NCBI GenBank assembly: GCA_900320815.1
Contig: ONTY01000066.1
Coordinates: 1 to 6,947, forward strand
Length of the DNA: 6,947 nt
Direction: 5' to 3'
Origin: an uncultured Pseudomonadota bacterium
Lineage (GTDB): Bacteria; Pseudomonadota; Gammaproteobacteria; Burkholderiales; Burkholderiaceae_C
Shown here piece after piece: positions 1,538 through 6,565 of the stretch. The translations under genes were made by a program, and so were the position numbers. The notes under the pieces are model-generated. The model was not told where the DNA came from. It saw only the letters and a program-made list of their open reading frames with translations, and made no database searches. How positions within the stretch are numbered: the first letter of the stretch is position 1; the number at the start of each line of letters is the position of its first letter.

Positions 1538-1551
1538 AGGATGTTGGGGTA

Positions 1552-2409
1552 TCAGTAATAGTTGCTGACGAGCGCGGCAATTTCAATGAGCAGCATGAGT
1601 GTTGCCATGTGGATGAGGCCGCGCAGCTCCAGGCTGGTGCGCGAGGCGCGCGCTGGGGCATCGCGCAGCGCCTGCGCCAGCGGCATGAGCGCGGTGGCAA
1701 AGGCGAACGCCAGCGTTTTCGCAATCAGGATGAGGACGACAGGGCGGCTGAAGATTTGCCCGACGGCGTGGTTGAACGAGCGCAGCCCGGTGAGCGTGAA
1801 GCCGCGCACGCCCACATACGCCAGCACCAGCGCCAGCAGCGCGCTGAGCATTGCCAGCAGCGCCACGGCAAAGGCGGCAGCTGCTGCGCGCGGCAGCACC
1901 AGCAGCGCCAGTGGCTCGCAGCCTGCGTCGCGCATGCGCTGTATGGCGCCATCGCGCCGCAGGCGAAAGAGGGCATTGCCCTCTGGCACGCTGTAGTTCA
2001 CGGCTACAAAGAGGGCTGCGGCCAGCGGCAGGATTTCCAGCACCAGCACGCGCACCACGGTATCGATCGCATACGTTGCCAGCCCGTAGGAGTAGGCTGT
2101 AACCATGACGATGTGAATGAGCACGATGCTCAGCAGCAGCATCAGCGCCGTAAAGCCCGGCAGCACCGGTCCGGCAGCCAGATAGATGTGGCGCAGCACA
2201 GCCTGCCGCACCCGCGCACTGCGCCACACCGCCGGCATGGTCGCCAGCACCACAAGCTGCGCGCCGAGCATCAGCACACGCCAGGCGCCCATGAGCGCGT
2301 GCAGCGGCGCGCGCACAAAACGCGGCAGGCGTGCCCAAAGCAGGCTGGGCCAGGCTGTAGACAGGAAGGTGGGCATAGAGCAGGCGGAAGCGGTGTTGCA
2401 GGGCAGCAT
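1552..2409 (-). CDS. MlaE-like ABC transporter permease, divergent
   Basis: The 285-residue product from the ATG at 2409 is an integral membrane protein with hydrophobic segments near residues 43-60, 84-106, 120-138, 170-200, 222-245 and 264-282. The stretch 'RMRDAGCEPLALLVLPR' (158-174) matches the MlaE-family cytoplasmic coupling segment (usually 'ALGVDPxRxLVxPR'), and 'EILPLAAALFVAV' precedes it as in the family. The usual small-residue 'GRVGAAIAAELG' stretch is replaced by 'NYSVPEGNALFRL', so it is a distant member. It should be the membrane core of the MCE lipid transporter encoded next. No ATPase gene lies between it and the MCE gene. The start is uncertain: the ATG at 2409 has only AAGG two bases upstream, and an in-frame ATG at 2376 is an equally reasonable choice; the frame also stays open to an ATG at 2523 inside the intergenic repeat, which I do not favour. 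Confidence 0.82.
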   Translation of the reverse strand: MLPCNTASACSMPTFLSTAWPSLLWARLPRFVRAPLHALMGAWRVLMLGAQLVVLATMPAVWRSARVRQAVLRHIYLAAGPVLPGFTALMLLLSIVLIHIVMVTAYSYGLATYAIDTVVRVLVLEILPLAAALFVAVNYSVPEGNALFRLRRDGAIQRMRDAGCEPLALLVLPRAAAAAFAVALLAMLSALLALVLAYVGVRGFTLTGLRSFNHAVGQIFSRPVVLILIAKTLAFAFATALMPLAQALRDAPARASRTSLELRGLIHMATLMLLIEIAALVSNYY

Positions 2410-2479: not shown

Positions 2480-2541
2480 TGGAGTATGGCAATTGATGCC
2501 CGCGATATATGCCGGCAATGCAAACTTTATAATTGGAGTAT
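2480..2541 (+). repeat. Modular intergenic element, copy 1 (62 bp)
   Basis: Reads TGGAGTAT (2480-2487), 10-nt spacer, GCCCGC (2498-2503), 7-nt spacer, GCCGGC (2511-2516), AAT plus 14 nt, TGGAGTAT (2534-2541). The two outer boxes are direct repeats 54 bp apart; the inner hexamers can pair at five of six positions. The same box order and spacing recur at 5887-5947 and 6505-6565 in the opposite orientation. It lies between the divergent permease and moxR genes and holds the putative moxR -10. It may be a dispersed repeat or a compound protein-binding site. Confidence 0.7.
2528..2533 (+). promoter_or_regulatory. Candidate -10 box for the moxR operon
   Basis: A perfect TATAAT lies 62 bp upstream of the moxR ATG, in the AT-rich spacer of repeat copy 1. 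No TTGACA-like -35 sits 16-18 bp upstream (the sequence there is GATATAT next to the GCCGGC core), so it would need an activator or be weak, or the match may be chance in an AT-rich stretch. Confidence 0.4.
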
Positions 2542-2553
2542 TTGATACACTCC
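2535..2553. promoter_or_regulatory. Dyad just after the moxR -10, possible operator
   Basis: GGAGT (2535-2539) is mirrored by ACTCC (2549-2553), with an inner GTAT-TTG-ATAC palindrome at 2538-2548. It starts two bases after the TATAAT and covers the expected transcription start, a usual place for a repressor site. The arms are short and no regulator is identified. Confidence 0.25.
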
Positions 2554-2595
2554 TGTTCATTTTGAAGCTGGTGTATCTGCTACCTTCCACGCCCC

Positions 2596-3516
2596 ATGAA
2601 TGTCACAGAAAAAATCCAGGCCATCCTTGGCCAACTGAACTCGGTGATCGCAGGCAAGGCGCCGCAGGTGCAAGACAGCGTCACCTGCCTGCTCGCGGGC
2701 GGGCACCTGCTCATTGAAGACGTGCCCGGCGTGGGCAAGACGACGCTTGCCAGCGCGCTGGCGCGCACCTTCGGGCTGCAATTTGCGCGCGTGCAGTTCA
2801 CTGCCGACCTCATGCCCAGCGACTTGACGGGCGTGTCGGTGTATGACCGGGGCAAGGAAGACTTCATCTTTCACCCCGGCCCCGTGTTCACGCAGGTGCT
2901 GCTGGCCGACGAAATCAACCGCGCCAGCCCCAAGACGCAAAGCGCACTGCTGGAGGCGATGGAAGAGCGCCAGGTGAGCGTGGAAGGCGCCACGCGCGCG
3001 CTGCCGCAGCCGTTTTTCGTCATTGCCACGCAAAACCCCTTTGAGCAGCTTGGCACCTATGCGCTGCCCGAGTCGCAGCTTGACCGCTTTCTGATGCGCA
3101 TCAGCCTGGGCTACCCCGAGCGCGCCGCCGAGCGCGAGCTGCTCTGCGGCCAGAACCGCCGCGACATCCTCGCCGGGCTGCCCGCCGTGCTGGGCGCGGG
3201 CGAACTCGCCGCGCTGCAGGCCGCCGTGGGACGCGTGCACGCATCCGACGCGCTGCTTGACTACGTGCAAGACATCGTCGCCGCCACGCGCAGCGGACGC
3301 TGGTTTGTGCAGGGGCTGTCGCCGCGCGCCGGCATCGCCTTGCTGCACGCCGCACGCGCGCAGGCACTCATTGAAGGGCGCGACTACGTCGCCCCCGACG
3401 ACGTGCAAGCCATCCTGCCGCAGTGCACCGCGCACCGCATGGTGCCCGTGGCCGATGCCGGGCGCGGCGCCGTGGAGCAGGTGCGCGCCATGATTGACGA
3501 GGTGCCGCTGCCATGA
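2596..3516 (+). CDS. MoxR-family AAA+ ATPase
   Basis: The 306-residue protein carries the full MoxR set: Walker A 'EDVPGVGKTT' (41-50, Lys48), the family stretch 'RVQFTADLMPSDLTG' (65-79), Walker B 'VLLADEINRA' (101-110, Asp105-Glu106), 'QSALLEAMEERQVSV' (115-129), sensor 1 'ATQNPFEQLGTY' (144-155), arginine finger region 'LPESQLDRF' (157-165) and sensor 2 'SPRA' (242-245). MoxR ATPases act as chaperones that insert cofactors or mature partner proteins, usually together with a DUF58 or VWA protein. A DUF58 gene follows two genes downstream. The ATG at 2596 is the first in frame and leaves the normal length before Walker A; no Shine-Dalgarno sequence is visible. The stop overlaps the next start by 4 bp. 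Expected in the cytoplasm. The physiological client cannot be named from the sequence. Confidence 0.96.
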   Translation: MNVTEKIQAILGQLNSVIAGKAPQVQDSVTCLLAGGHLLIEDVPGVGKTTLASALARTFGLQFARVQFTADLMPSDLTGVSVYDRGKEDFIFHPGPVFTQVLLADEINRASPKTQSALLEAMEERQVSVEGATRALPQPFFVIATQNPFEQLGTYALPESQLDRFLMRISLGYPERAAERELLCGQNRRDILAGLPAVLGAGELAALQAAVGRVHASDALLDYVQDIVAATRSGRWFVQGLSPRAGIALLHAARAQALIEGRDYVAPDDVQAILPQCTAHRMVPVADAGRGAVEQVRAMIDEVPLP

Positions 3517-4889
3517 AGCGGCTCGCCTTGCCGCACGCTTGGCGCAGCCGTTTTTGGGACCGCGTTTTGGCGGGTCTCTTTATCGCTGCTGCCACACTGG
3601 TTGCGGCCGTGGCATGGCAGCGGCCAGCGCGTGACCCGAAGCTGGCATTTTTTAGCCCGGAAATATATCCAGAAGAATTGGCGCGCCACACCTGGCTGGG
3701 CATGATCAATAACGTCTATACGCCTGAAAAACTGCGCCGCAGCCTGGAAACCGCGCGCCAGCAGGGCGCGCGCCTGCAGCTTGATTTCAGCCCCATTTTT
3801 CTGCGCAAGCACCAGGATATTCACACAACGTACCAAAGCAACGGCCAGTTGCAGCAAAAATCCTTTTCTCCCCTGCCCAGTCACAAAGTCAAGCGCCCCA
3901 ATACATACAGCGAACTCAAGCGTTTGATAGCACCGACTGCACCCATTCTCAAAAAATACCGCCGCCAAATCGCTGCCATTTTTATCGCCGACGAACCCTA
4001 TTTGCACGGCATCAGCCGCAGCGAACTGGAGCGCGCTGCGCGCAGCGTGCGCCACTTGCTGGCAGAAAACGGGCTGCACGATGTGCCGCTGGGCGTCACT
4101 TTTGCTGGCGCCATGTTTCATCCCGGCTTTGCTGCCATGATAGCGGGTCAGGCAAATGCGTATGTGGCAGACATTGAACAGTATTATCAAAATATCCGTG
4201 GCGATGAAAGCGAAGAAAGCCGGCGCTGGATTGAAGCCTATTCCCAAAATCGCCTCACCACCTACGACCTGGCGGGCAATATCTACACCGGCGGCGGCAT
4301 CCCCGAAGGGGTGGACATCATTGCCTACGACCTGTATACCGCCTCGCTGCTGCAAGATACCCTGCACGCGCACACGCTGGCATGGTTTGCAGAACTCGGC
4401 GCCAGCGCGGCATGCACGCCATTCAAAAACACCTCCATGCCTCAGGTGCGAACTCAATTGAGCTTTTATTCAGACGACAATGCCGGCGCCGCCCCCGGCG
4501 CACAAGAAGCCGATAACGCCCTGCTGAACGCCATATTCACCTGCAAATCTGAATCCATGCTGCAGCTGCTCAAAAAACACGCACCCAAAGGCACGACACT
4601 GCAACTGTGGGGCGAGTCCAGCGCCAACGGATTTCTTGATTTCGACGCGCGTGGCAATAAAAAAAACGAACAGTCGCAGGCTCTGATTGCGGCGCGCGTG
4701 CGCAGTGAAATGCAGCGCACGCTGGATTTTTATCAGCGCCGGCGCCGAGACTATGCCGGCGGCCTCATTTTTTTCATTTGGGACGATACCGTTGACATCA
4801 CCATCAATTTACCCATTTCAGGCGCGCGCTCCGTGCCCGGTGCGCCAGCGATGGTGTTTGAAAAAATTGGTAAACGCCGTCCGCACTAG
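3513..4889 (+). CDS. Unrecognised membrane-anchored protein, possible TIM-barrel hydrolase
   Basis: I do not recognise this 458-residue protein. A signal anchor at about residues 17-35 follows a basic N terminus, so the rest should be periplasmic. The body alternates hydrophobic strands and helices: 'ARLQLDFSP' (86-94), 'IAAIFIADEP' (153-162), 'VPLGVTFAG' (191-199), 'GVDIIAYDLY' (266-275), 'TLQLWGES' (362-369) and 'GGLIFFIWDD' (416-425). Strand ends with Asp-Glu-Pro (160-162) and Gly-Glu (367-368) resemble the acid/base and nucleophile sites of barrel glycoside hydrolases; this is inference, not a family match. GAGG at 3499-3502 is a suitable Shine-Dalgarno sequence, and the ATG overlaps the moxR stop (ATGA). 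Codon use is visibly more AT-rich than in both neighbours, suggesting a different history. It sits where it could be the substrate or effector of the MoxR/DUF58 pair. Confidence 0.85.
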   Translation: MKRLALPHAWRSRFWDRVLAGLFIAAATLVAAVAWQRPARDPKLAFFSPEIYPEELARHTWLGMINNVYTPEKLRRSLETARQQGARLQLDFSPIFLRKHQDIHTTYQSNGQLQQKSFSPLPSHKVKRPNTYSELKRLIAPTAPILKKYRRQIAAIFIADEPYLHGISRSELERAARSVRHLLAENGLHDVPLGVTFAGAMFHPGFAAMIAGQANAYVADIEQYYQNIRGDESEESRRWIEAYSQNRLTTYDLAGNIYTGGGIPEGVDIIAYDLYTASLLQDTLHAHTLAWFAELGASAACTPFKNTSMPQVRTQLSFYSDDNAGAAPGAQEADNALLNAIFTCKSESMLQLLKKHAPKGTTLQLWGESSANGFLDFDARGNKKNEQSQALIAARVRSEMQRTLDFYQRRRRDYAGGLIFFIWDDTVDITINLPISGARSVPGAPAMVFEKIGKRRPH

Positions 4890-4898
4890 CAAAACGCC

Positions 4899-5909
4899 AT
4901 GACCGCTTCCTCCCTGCCCCCCTGGGCGTTGCATGCGCGGCTGCGGCGGCGCATCCAGCGCTGGTTCCTGCGCATCCCGCCCGCCGACACGCTGCTGCTG
5001 GACCACCGCAACACCTACATCCTGCCCACGCGCGCCGGCTTCATGCTTGCCGCCACGCTCATCGTGCTGCTCATTGCCTCCATCAACTACCAGCTCGGTC
5101 TGGGCTACCTGCTCACTTTCTTGCTAGCGGGCTGCACGGCGTCGGGCATGTGGGTGGCGCACAGCACATTGCGCGGGCTGCGGCTGCATATGAGCGCGCC
5201 GCAGCCGCTGTTCGCCGGCGCATTGGCTGTGCTGGACGTGGTGCTGGCCAACGAGCGCCGCACGCCACGCGTTGCCATTGCGCTGGCGCTGCACGGCACG
5301 CAAAACTGGTCTTGGGCGGATGTGCCCGCGCAGGGGCGCGCGAGTGTGCAGCTCAGTTTCAAACCCGCGCGCCGTGGGTTGCACACGCTGCCTGCGCTCA
5401 CCGTGCAAACGCTCTTTCCGATGGGGGCATTTCGCGTCTGGTCCGTCTGGCGCCCCGCCGCGCAGGTGCTGGTGTGGCCCGCACCCGAAACCTCGCCCCC
5501 GCCGCTGCCACCAGGTCAGCCCACAGCAGGCGCCGGCATTGCCAGCGGCGCGCGTGCGGCTGGCGAGTTTGACGGCGTGCGCGCCTACCGCCCCGGCGAT
5601 GGCATGCGCCTGATCGTGTGGAAAAAATTCGCCCGCGCCGGTGAACTCGTCTCGCGCGACGCCATGCAGATGCAGCAGCGCCAGCTCTGGCTGGACTTTT
5701 CGCTCACTGGGGCGATGGAGGCGGAAGCGCGCCTCTCGCGCCTGGCCGCCTGGGTGCTCGCCGCCGACGCGCAAGGGCTGGATTACGGCCTGCGGCTGCC
5801 CGGCACAGAAATCCCCCCCGACCAGGGCGCTCCCCAGCGCCTGCGCTGCCTGCAGGCGCTGGCGCTGTGGGGGCAGCCAGCAGCAGATACTCCACTTGAT
5901 AAACAATGA
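4899..5909 (+). CDS. DUF58-domain protein, partner of MoxR
   Basis: The 336-residue protein has a basic N-terminal segment (about 13-25), two adjacent membrane helices at about 46-63 and 66-86, a beta-rich middle ('RRGLHTLPALTVQTLFPMG', 158-176) and the DUF58 signature 'EFDGVRAYRPGDGMRLIVWK' (223-242) followed by 'KFARAGELVSRD' (243-254). DUF58 proteins are routinely encoded beside MoxR ATPases and are thought to act as membrane-bound partners in maturation or delivery of clients. The start lies 9 bp after the stop of the preceding gene; no Shine-Dalgarno sequence is evident, so expression may depend on upstream translation. The last seven codons (Asp330 to Gln336) and the stop lie inside repeat copy 2, so the native C terminus may have been replaced. 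The transglutaminase-like gene that often comes next is not present. Confidence 0.93.
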   Translation: MTASSLPPWALHARLRRRIQRWFLRIPPADTLLLDHRNTYILPTRAGFMLAATLIVLLIASINYQLGLGYLLTFLLAGCTASGMWVAHSTLRGLRLHMSAPQPLFAGALAVLDVVLANERRTPRVAIALALHGTQNWSWADVPAQGRASVQLSFKPARRGLHTLPALTVQTLFPMGAFRVWSVWRPAAQVLVWPAPETSPPPLPPGQPTAGAGIASGARAAGEFDGVRAYRPGDGMRLIVWKKFARAGELVSRDAMQMQQRQLWLDFSLTGAMEAEARLSRLAAWVLAADAQGLDYGLRLPGTEIPPDQGAPQRLRCLQALALWGQPAADTPLDKQ

Positions 5910-5911
5910 TT

Positions 5912-5930
5912 GCCGGCTTGTTATGCCGGC
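5912..5930 (+). terminator. Hairpin after the moxR-DUF58 operon, no U tract
   Basis: GCCGGC, 7-nt loop TTGTTAT, GCCGGC forms a perfect six-pair GC stem two bases after the DUF58 stop (5907-5909). Its position suggests it ends or protects the operon transcript, but the bases that follow (GATGATATAAT) are not a U tract, so an intrinsic terminator is doubtful. It is also the core of repeat copy 2. Confidence 0.35.
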
Positions 5931-5935
5931 GATGA

Positions 5936-5941
5936 TATAAT
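5936..5941 (+). promoter_or_regulatory. Candidate -10 box for the acidic DUF4303-like gene
   Basis: Perfect TATAAT 43 bp upstream of the ATG at 5985, inside repeat copy 2. TTGCCG at 5910-5915 is the nearest -35 resemblance but is 20 bp away, longer than the usual 16-18. The gene has its own ribosome binding site and follows a hairpin, which fits a separate promoter here. Confidence 0.45.
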
Positions 5942-5970
5942 ACCCCATCAATCTTCCCGTTCATCCAACG

Positions 5971-5976
5971 AAAGGA
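5971..5976 (+). promoter_or_regulatory. Ribosome binding site deciding the start at 5985
   Basis: AAAGGA lies 8 nt before the ATG at 5985. It rules against the in-frame upstream ATG at 5910, which has no such site and would add 25 residues read through the repeat. An out-of-frame ATG at 5980 is too close to the site. Confidence 0.75.
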
Positions 5977-5984
5977 CGTATGCC

Positions 5985-6503
5985 ATGCCCCTCAACGAAG
6001 CCCGCAAACAGGAAATGCTGCAGCAAATTGCCGCCGACATTGAAACATTTCTCAAGGAACACCCCGGCGAGACCTTTTATACCTTCGGCTTTGACTTCAA
6101 CGCCAGCGAAGCCGAAATCCTGCTGTCTTTCAACACCGAAGAAGCCTATGCCGAGCGCCTGAAATACTATCAAGACAATTACAGTCCATATGACGACGAC
6201 GACCAAGAAATGCGCTACGGCACAGGCGACTGGAAATACCAGGGCACCAATATTTACTACATCTGCGAGGAAGAAGAAAAAGACAAGATATACGACGACG
6301 ATGAAGACAATGACTATGAAAATGCCAAGAAAGCCTTTATGGACTTTGCCTACGGCCTGCTGCTTGCGGTGTGTCGCACGCCTGCCTACCAAGCCATCCC
6401 CAAAACCAAAGATTTCCTCGTCATCCTCACCGAACACGACGAAGACAACCTGGAAGGCATCGAAAGAGGCAAACGCCTGATGGCCGAGATTGCCCAGTCT
6501 TAA
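5985..6503 (+). CDS. Small acidic cytoplasmic protein, probably DUF4303-like
   Basis: The 172-residue product has no signal or membrane segment. It begins with an amphipathic helix, then 'GETFYTFGFDF' (28-38) and 'SFNTEEAYAERLKYY' (48-62), a 'GDWKYQG' strand (81-87), two very acidic stretches ('EEEEKD' 95-100 and 'DDDEDNDYEN' 104-113), a helix 'AKKAFMDFAYGLLLAV' (114-129) and 'DFLVILTEHDEDNLEGIERG' (143-162). The order F-Y-x-F, N-T-E-E-A, a Trp strand and a late V-I-L-T-x-x-D resembles the DUF4303 family from memory; I cannot confirm this without a profile search. The function of that family is not established. Codon use is less GC-rich than in the flanking operons. The gene stands alone between like-oriented repeat copies 2 and 3, with its stop one base before copy 3, which hints at acquisition as a unit. 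Confidence 0.85.
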   Translation: MPLNEARKQEMLQQIAADIETFLKEHPGETFYTFGFDFNASEAEILLSFNTEEAYAERLKYYQDNYSPYDDDDQEMRYGTGDWKYQGTNIYYICEEEEKDKIYDDDEDNDYENAKKAFMDFAYGLLLAVCRTPAYQAIPKTKDFLVILTEHDEDNLEGIERGKRLMAEIAQS

Positions 6504-6504
6504 A

Positions 6505-6565
6505 ATACCCAGCAATATTACACATCATTGCCCTTATTCTGTGCGGGTATTCAATCATATACCCA
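6505..6565 (-). repeat. Modular intergenic element, copy 3 (61 bp, degenerate)
   Basis: Read on the minus strand: TGGGTAT (6565-6559), 10-nt spacer, ACCCGC (6548-6543), 7-nt spacer, AAGGGC (6535-6530), AATG plus spacer, TGGGTAT (6511-6505). Outer boxes are 54 bp apart and all inner spacings agree with copies 1 and 2, but the boxes lack one base and the core hexamers have diverged, keeping only a CCC/GGG pairing. It starts one base after the stop of the DUF4303-like gene. Confidence 0.55.

What the first reader, a model, noticed from the sequence alone, without database searches (positions are those of the whole stretch)
2480..6565. Three copies of an unrecognised ~61-bp modular intergenic element with fixed box spacing
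All three main intergenic gaps hold the same architecture: a TGGRGTAT-like box, 9-10 nt, a GC hexamer, exactly 7 nt, a second GC hexamer followed by AAT, then a same-direction TGGRGTAT-like box 53-54 bp from the first (2480-2541 plus; 5887-5947 and 6505-6565 minus). Boxes and spacings are kept while most spacer bases are not. That pattern fits either a compound protein-binding site (53-54 bp is about five helical turns) or an old, diverging dispersed repeat family. I do not recognise it as REP, ERIC, a Correia element or an integron attC site.
Basis: seen in the sequence. Interest (0 to 1): 0.75.

Follow-up and report, generated by a model that had tools for sequence, protein, structure and literature searches.

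The report
Repeated DNA-wrapping sites at gene ends
Two related small-genome bacteria, likely of the genus Ottowia, carry several hundred copies of a rigidly spaced, roughly 60-letter DNA signal that is concentrated where genes end and that the same exact search did not find in 398 related genomes; it is likely a double-stranded DNA site that a still unknown protein would bind and wrap to mark gene boundaries.

Summary
The three copies belong to a dispersed family: 131 copies in 448 kb of the window's own genome and 207 in 532 kb of one congener, with 0 in reversed sequence at 12 bits or more. An exact pattern gives 311 and 544 matches in the two whole genomes, controls 0, and none in 398 other family genomes. 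Layout: GTAT, 7-8 nt, 23-bp dyad TYGCCSGC-N7-GCSGGCRA, 19 nt, GTAT. GTAT is nearly invariant and spacers are nearly free. Convergent gaps are mostly filled (26/33, 46/52), there is no strand preference. AT-rich steps about a helical turn apart run into both flanks, also on sides without a predicted terminator (clear in the congener, weak in the own genome); predicted terminators favour two distances outside the boxes (66/88 in the congener, 20/46 in the own genome). The core pairs slightly better than chance. Best reading: a bound, probably wrapped, double-stranded site acting as gene-end punctuation; protein unknown. It resembles E. coli BIME repeats in position but fails the tag and transposase tests of REPs. 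A REP-like, formerly mobile origin is the main rival.

The parts
2480..2487 (+). copy 1, left box TGGAGTAT (GTAT at 2484-2487)
2496..2518 (+). copy 1, 23-bp dyad core (left gap 8 nt)
2534..2541 (+). copy 1, right box TGGAGTAT (GTAT at 2538-2541), followed by an inverted ATACACTCC
5940..5947 (-). copy 2, left box TGGGGTAT
5910..5932 (-). copy 2, 23-bp dyad core (left gap 7 nt)
5887..5894 (-). copy 2, right box TGGAGTAT; lies inside the last codons of the DUF58 reading frame, whose stop (5907-5909) is inside the element
6559..6565 (-). copy 3, left box TGGGTAT
6528..6550 (-). copy 3, degenerate dyad core (left gap 8 nt)
6505..6511 (-). copy 3, right box TGGGTAT, one base after the DUF4303 stop codon (6501-6503)
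1552..2376 (-). MlaE-type permease gene, neighbour of copy 1 (divergent gap)
   Evidence: Pfam PF02405
2596..3516 (+). MoxR-type AAA ATPase gene
   Evidence: Pfam PF07726
4899..5909 (+). DUF58 gene whose 3' end runs into copy 2
   Evidence: Pfam PF01882; congener comparison
5985..6503 (+). DUF4303 gene between copies 2 and 3
   Evidence: Pfam PF14136
6587..6946 (+). start of a FecCD-type transport permease gene (runs off the contig)
   Evidence: Pfam PF01032

Best explanation
The three elements are copies of a several-hundred-copy intergenic family, found in two species, whose rigid, phased layout is predicted to be a double-stranded DNA site that an unidentified protein would bind at the two GTAT boxes and the central dyad and likely wrap or sharply bend, above all where genes end. 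Shown: copy number, layout, near-invariant GTAT, nearly free spacers, 3'-end and convergent-gap bias, lack of strand preference, AT-rich steps locked to the element in both flanks, and preferred distances to predicted terminators. Inferred: that a protein binds, that the DNA is wrapped, and that the complex works as a bidirectional boundary at gene ends, for instance by blocking read-through polymerase or by holding supercoils between convergent genes. The binding protein is not identified; gyrase or an IHF-type protein are the known models of such a site.
For: Spacing is kept while spacer sequence is not: right gap 17 in 62/63 and 65/68 with 15-19 allowed; left gap 7 or 8 in 129/131 and 205/207. 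In 90 and 192 copies with left gap 7, G of GTAT carries 1.4-1.5 bits and T, A, T 2.0-2.2 bits each, while nearly all spacer columns are below 0.9. Positions behave nearly independently, as in a binding-site matrix: no two non-redundant copies share more than 45 (own genome) or 48 (congener) of 57 bases. AT content peaks at offsets -30 or -28, -20, -9, 9 or 12, 22, 32, 44, 51 or 52 and 65 from the core start in the two genomes, in the own genome also at -54, -42 and 0. In the congener the flank peaks (about 8, 19, 30, 40 nt from the GTAT edge) persist on sides without a predicted terminator: best period 10.0 (n=80) and 11.2 (n=82), none of 500 randomisations as strong. Predicted terminators have their T-tract start 7-14 or 18-23 nt outside the GTAT edge in 66 of 88 cases in the congener, where 14 of 56 positions were counted as hits. 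Convergent gaps of 60 bp or more are filled in 26/33 and 46/52, divergent in 10/41 and 20/58 (Fisher 5e-6 and 6e-9); strand relative to tandem genes is random, 26/57 and 36/87. Of the window copies only copy 2 folds clearly better than shuffles (7 of 200 as good; copies 1 and 3: 152 and 20).
Against: No binding protein was found; HU/IHF gene number is as in congeners (3 in both, 2-5 in the eleven others). The core pairs better than column-shuffled cores (mean RNA energy -9.23 against -7.71 sd 0.26; -13.03 against -12.39 sd 0.09) and pair 6/18 covaries (z 4.5 and 8.3), which a hairpin also explains. Periods are not a clean 10.5: flanks 12.2, 12.3 (own) and 11.4, 11.5 (congener), inside the element 11.1 and 16.0; neighbouring cores (82-84 bp apart in 32 of 66 pairs) 11.8-11.9. 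The randomisation tests any AT pattern locked to the element, not periodicity as such. In the own genome the flank pattern without terminators is weak (periods 8.8 and 12.1, p 0.014 and 0.026) and only 20 of 46 terminators are at the preferred distances; those distances were chosen. Tandem gaps are not significantly fuller than divergent ones (p 0.18 and 0.06). Gaps with elements have terminators as often as gaps without, so a role in termination is not shown. The congener has more similar copies than independence gives.
Confidence: 0.5

Rival explanations
1. A REP-like, formerly mobile family: a GTAT-tagged palindrome spread by a transposase now lost or not recognised, which preferred landing sites next to terminators; the copies are old and the boxes are kept only by residual constraint.
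For: Hundreds of copies in two of the 29 genomes of the genus searched (a third, G023, had one marginal match that the exact pattern does not confirm). Presence differs between orthologous gaps: of 12 gaps of 60 bp or more, 1 has elements in both species, 1 only in G000, 2 only in G027, 8 in neither. Pairs in inverted or tandem order at preferred distances, as REP dimers. The congener has more similar copies than independence gives (100 pairs at 44/57 or more, 14.5 expected). Published REPs lie mainly downstream of genes, and CGTC repeats also lack a dedicated transposase (PMC3733652, abstract and passages).
Against: No Y1 transposase at E up to 1 in G027 (97% complete), one match in G000; other transposase families were not searched. 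No recent copies: best pair 48 of 57 bases. Old immobile copies should have lost their spacing by indels. Tag is GTAT at both ends, not GTAG or CGTC at one.
Confidence: 0.33
2. An RNA element: a hairpin in 3' untranslated regions that ends or protects mRNA from both strands.
For: 3'-end and convergent bias without strand preference; core pairing above chance.
Against: GTAT boxes outside the stem are the most conserved part; left spacer does not covary with right spacer; no T-run in the consensus directly after the stem; copies in divergent gaps (16 of 131, 25 of 207); the AT pattern extends beyond the element; no Rfam match in the window at the gathering score.
Confidence: 0.12
3. An operator of one regulator with a limited regulon.
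For: Dyad plus direct boxes, rigid spacing.
Against: Hundreds of copies; divergent gaps, where promoters face each other, have the smallest filled share.
Confidence: 0.03
4. Chance resemblance of intergenic sequence.
For: None found.
Against: Reversed controls 0 (at 12 bits or more); 0 exact matches in 398 other family genomes.
Confidence: 0.01

Closest known systems
E. coli BIME-1 / RIB elements (IHF-binding repeats at 3' ends of transcription units)
   Same: Dispersed palindrome-bearing intergenic repeats; the inter-REP sequence of BIME-1 binds IHF (PMC2817692, passage; the RIB paper with its '3' end of transcription units' only as a title in its reference list).
   Different: Here one dyad between two direct GTAT boxes; the IHF consensus (recalled) is within 1 mismatch at box 1 in only 14/90 and 31/192 copies, no more than column composition gives (13.4 and 26.7).
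E. coli BIME-2 repeats and the gyrase motif
   Same: Gyrase motif: 130 bp, symmetric, GC periodicity 10.75 bp; cleavage sites enriched downstream of operons and in BIME-2 (PMC6379681, abstract and passages). The Ottowia element has AT steps over about 95-119 bp.
   Different: The gyrase motif is degenerate; here GTAT is nearly invariant and the steps are 10-12 bp apart. That paper finds the downstream attraction of gyrase not coded in the sequence. Not scored against the gyrase matrix (supplement not readable here).
REP elements (GTAG and CGTC superfamilies)
   Same: High copy, palindrome with an unpaired tag, mainly downstream of genes, singles and dimers (PMC3733652, abstract and passages).
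   Different: Tag GTAT on both sides, 7-8 and 19 nt from the dyad; no Y1 transposase in G027; length about 57 bp against 20-40.
GapR-bound positively supercoiled DNA
   Same: Recalled: GapR marks positive supercoils at convergent gene ends; of PMC8360656 only the search listing and start of abstract were seen.
   Different: No relation by sequence tested.

Membership tests
REP (GTAG/CGTC-tagged) | unpaired GTAG or CGTC tag at one end of the palindrome | tested here: not met
   tag is GTAT, on both sides
REP (GTAG/CGTC-tagged) | associated RAYT (Y1) transposase | tested here: not met
   none in G027 at E<=1; one Y1 match in the 81% complete G000, not examined for flanking elements. The published CGTC class also lacks one
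REP (GTAG/CGTC-tagged) | high copy number, mostly downstream of coding regions | tested here: met
REP (GTAG/CGTC-tagged) | imperfect palindrome with base-paired stem | tested here: met
   core pairs above column-shuffled chance, effect small
BIME-1 / RIB | IHF site between two inverted palindromes | tested here: not met
   one dyad per element; IHF consensus poor in most copies. IHF sites in the linkers of inverted pairs were not tested apart
strong gyrase site | symmetric 130-bp GC periodicity of about 10.75 bp | tested here: inconclusive
   AT steps over about 95-119 bp, but periods 11.1-16.0 in that call and 10.0-11.5 in the congener flanks; gyrase matrix not available
strong gyrase site | gyrase cleavage in vivo | not testable with these tools
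   needs Topo-Seq
MITE | terminal inverted repeats | tested here: not met
   ends are direct GTAT repeats
MITE | target site duplication | not tested
   no empty orthologous site was aligned
integron attC, ERIC, Correia element | their consensus sequences | not tested
   not compared; the window has no Rfam match at the gathering score

The most novel reading that the evidence does not exclude
A lineage-specific, sequence-directed DNA-wrapping site, read by a dedicated protein with strict specificity for two GTAT boxes and a dyad, has been installed at hundreds of gene ends in two small-genome Ottowia species as chromosome-wide punctuation, with terminators placed in register one or two turns away.
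Probability: 0.28. Interest if true: 0.85.

Novelty: new variant of a known kind. Interest (0 to 1): 0.62.

Why it matters
Repeats at gene ends (REP, BIME) are hard to explain because stem, mobility and protein binding are mixed. Here the conserved parts are separated by rigid spacers, two species have the family and the other congeners searched do not, and the layout predicts register effects that a footprint or a half-turn spacer change would test. If a protein wraps these sites, it would be a bacterial example of sequence-coded, nucleosome-like positioning at gene boundaries that arose within one genus.

Tried and rejected
Rejected: operator of a small regulon (copy number, position); chance (controls); replacement of a lost Rho factor (Rho present in both); extra HU/IHF gene; canonical IHF site; elements standing in for terminators (convergent 21/32 with element against 17/22 without, and 39/66 against 8/18; tandem 11/26 against 42/67, and 32/61 against 28/57; none significant); copy-specific pairing of the spacers (z 1.4 in the own genome, 0.0 in the congener); RAYT-driven REP. 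In inverted pairs 82-84 bp apart the linker GTAT-N13..15-ATAC is somewhat palindromic (22 pairs, p 0.012); too few to build on.

Failed or flawed: one search scanned genome contigs with N{18} before the last GTAT where N{19} is right; one search shows that this pattern matches none of the sampled copies, so its zero is no result. One search replaces it within the family only. One search, on the first 25 copies, found no covariation; larger sets found it at pair 6/18. The matrix was trained on the contigs it was counted on; searches are the check on whole genomes. The right gap was fixed in that matrix and left gaps of 6-9 only were tried; its constancy rests. Searches used subsets (left gap 7, full flanks; 63 also no neighbour within 150 bp). 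The preferred terminator distances were picked. The gene caller is a home-made codon-usage script; it put 10 of 131 and 4 of 207 cores inside genes, several at gene edges. I first read the neighbour distances as 10.5-bp steps; the better fit is 11.8-11.9.
Full report
What is there. The three intergenic copies are real and at the stated places. A direct-repeat pattern finds 14 copies in the own genome and 0 reversed, a looser one 25 and 0; of those 25 one of 55 bp (locus L032) was set aside as unlike the rest. A sequence model from 25 copies (the other 24 plus the third window copy) gave 151 matches at E up to 1 in the own genome, a lower bound because 150 of 1614 candidates were scored.

Whole family. 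On 60 contigs of the own genome (447,922 bases) and 60 contigs or parts of contigs of congener G027 (531,969 bases), refined position matrices find 131 and 207 copies at 12 bits or more; reversed sequence gives 0 there (1 at 8-10 bits in the own genome). An exact IUPAC pattern has 77 and 150 matches on the same contigs and 311 and 544 in the two whole genomes, with 0 in the controls. By that recall I estimate about 530 and 750 copies; this is an estimate, not a count.

Who has it. Among 60 genomes searched with the model, which include the own genome and 28 congeners, 4 had a match at E 0.001: G000 and G027 (87 each, the number scored), G023 (1, E 6.4e-4) and G043 of another family (2, best 2.7e-5); that call used stricter filters that lose weak matches. 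The exact pattern finds none in G023 and G043, and none in 398 other genomes of the family; 349 of the 399 searched were at least 90% complete and at most 5% contaminated, and G027 was not in that draw. No contig of the viral collection matched a similar pattern. The genome-contig scan used a wrong spacing and counts for nothing. The genus is Ottowia by inference: the best MoxR relative is O. beijingensis, 84% identical, and congener G003 has the same DUF58 end and following 130 bases as that record (loci L206 and L304).

Anatomy. GTAT - 7 or 8 nt - TYGCCSGC N7 GCSGGCRA - 19 nt - GTAT. Of 76 and 78 strong cores, 63 and 68 had boxes at allowed places; the left gap was 7 in 50 and 64, the right gap 17 (to GRGTAT) in 62 and 65. 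In 90 and 192 copies with left gap 7, the G of GTAT carries 1.4-1.5 bits and T, A, T 2.0-2.2 each; nearly all spacer letters are under 0.9. The own genome prefers TTGCC, the congener TCGCC. Copies look nearly like independent draws from one matrix: the best non-redundant pair shares 45 of 57 bases in the own genome and 48 in the congener. The congener does have an excess of similar pairs (100 at 44 or more, 14.5 expected), the own genome little (1, 0.4 expected).

Pairing. The core is a dyad. Its pair 6/18 covaries (z 4.5 in 90 copies, 8.3 in 189), others weakly, and loop pair 11/13 is paired less often than chance in both genomes (z -4.7 and -9.6). Overall the stem is slightly more stable than column-shuffled cores. 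The arms outside the core do not covary. Of the window copies only copy 2 folds clearly better than shuffles as single-stranded DNA (7 of 200 as good; copies 1 and 3: 152 and 20). A hairpin, matched half-sites of a dimer, or template-switch repair of the palindrome would each give this (inference).

Place. By a home-made gene caller (360 and 475 genes), convergent gaps of 60 bp or more hold elements in 26 of 33 and 46 of 52, tandem gaps in 41 of 112 and 73 of 149, divergent gaps in 10 of 41 and 20 of 58; convergent against divergent is significant, tandem against divergent is not (p 0.18 and 0.06). In convergent gaps the median distance to the nearest stop is 20 and 8 nt. Single elements in tandem gaps of 150 bp or more are nearer the stop than the start in 14 of 20 (p 0.12) and 32 of 38 (p 2e-5). 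Strand relative to the genes is random (26/57, 36/87). In the window, copy 1 lies in a divergent gap, copy 2 overlaps the DUF58 end, copy 3 starts one base after the DUF4303 stop. In all 18 congener loci compared (L287-L304, genomes G001-G018), DUF58 ends exactly 12 codons earlier; here the frame continues and takes its stop from the element.

Register. Elements with left gap 7 and no neighbour within 150 bp (52 and 123) show AT peaks at -30 or -28, -20, -9, 9 or 12, 22, 32, 44, 51 or 52 and 65 from the core start, in the own genome also at -54, -42 and 0; best periods are 12.2 and 12.3 in the flanks of the own genome, 11.4 and 11.5 in the congener, and 11.1 and 16.0 inside the element. In the congener the peaks outside the GTAT boxes fall at about 8, 19, 30 and 40 nt on both sides, with and without a predicted terminator, best periods 10.0-11.5, none of 500 randomisations as strong in the four groups; in the own genome the pattern is clear on box-1 sides with a terminator (none of 500) and weak in the other three groups (p 0.014-0.026). 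The randomisation rotates each flank, so it tests any AT pattern locked to the element; that the pattern is periodic rests on the peak places. Predicted terminators facing an isolated element have their T-tract start at 7-14 or 18-23 nt from the GTAT edge in 66 of 88 cases in the congener and 20 of 46 in the own genome, those being 14 of the 56 distances examined, chosen; 52 of 139 and 17 of 87 elements have such a terminator on at least one side. Gaps with elements are not significantly poorer or richer in terminators. Neighbouring cores stand 82-84 bp apart in 32 of 66 pairs within 160 bp, with further clusters near 73, 96 and 107; the best period is 11.8-11.9 bp (without the 80-86 class: 34 pairs, p 0.0005), longer than a B-DNA turn and unexplained.

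Reading. Rigid spacing with nearly free spacers, near-invariant direct boxes, absence of strand preference and an AT pattern beyond the conserved sequence point to double-stranded DNA bound by protein and probably wrapped (inference). Gene-end and convergent position suggests a boundary role (inference). Known parallels are BIME-1, whose inter-REP sequence binds IHF, and BIME-2, bound by gyrase (PMC2817692 passages), and the 130-bp gyrase motif with 10.75-bp GC periodicity (PMC6379681 abstract and passages); that paper also says that the attraction of gyrase downstream of operons is not coded in the sequence. IHF: the two GTAT boxes rank first and second among 234 position-strand pairs in both genomes (second tied in the own genome), but most copies miss the consensus. 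HU/IHF gene counts and Rho are as in congeners.

Mobility. The family was found in two species and differs between orthologous gaps (12 gaps of 60 bp or more: 1 shared, 3 in one species only, 8 empty), so it was gained or lost at several places. No Y1 transposase is in G027; other transposases were not searched. I therefore keep a REP-like mobile past as the main rival, and the two are compatible: a spread family can be kept for binding.

Print. Of the literature searches only named Ottowia; its one hit concerns plasmids (listing only). None of the listings showed a description of this element. RepRanger (PMC12306157) was seen as abstract and outline, PMC9943676 as passages and not used. The library holds open-licence papers only, so this is weak evidence of novelty.

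Noticed in passing
window 3513-4889: 458-aa protein between MoxR and DUF58 without any Pfam match at E 0.001.
   Followed up: no
window 5909 onward; L206 and congener loci L287-L304: In many congener loci the DNA after DUF58 reads by eye like the start of another gene (a stretch resembling RDTRDTLFLL); here a DUF4303 gene and two elements stand in its place, so the operon seems cut.
   Followed up: partly
window 1544-1552: A lone TTGGGGTAT box between the MlaD- and MlaE-type genes, without dyad or second box (read).
   Followed up: no
G027 and G000 cores: Loop heptamers occur in both orientations relative to the boxes (in G027 AACATAA 30 and TTATGTT 5; TTCATAA 16 and TTATGAA 10 of 192), as if the core could flip inside the element.
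   Followed up: partly
G027 contig C36, 4763-5852: Three similar copies on one strand within 1.1 kb, with purine-rich right spacers unlike the rest; perhaps inside a repetitive coding region.
   Followed up: no
L147, L170, L192 and others: Some inverted pairs have a perfectly or nearly palindromic linker, for example GTATTTGTTGCACAACAAATAC in L147.
   Followed up: partly
L078, cores at 3182 and 3266: Two tandem copies lie inside a called 566-aa reading frame on the other strand; gene call not verified.
   Followed up: no
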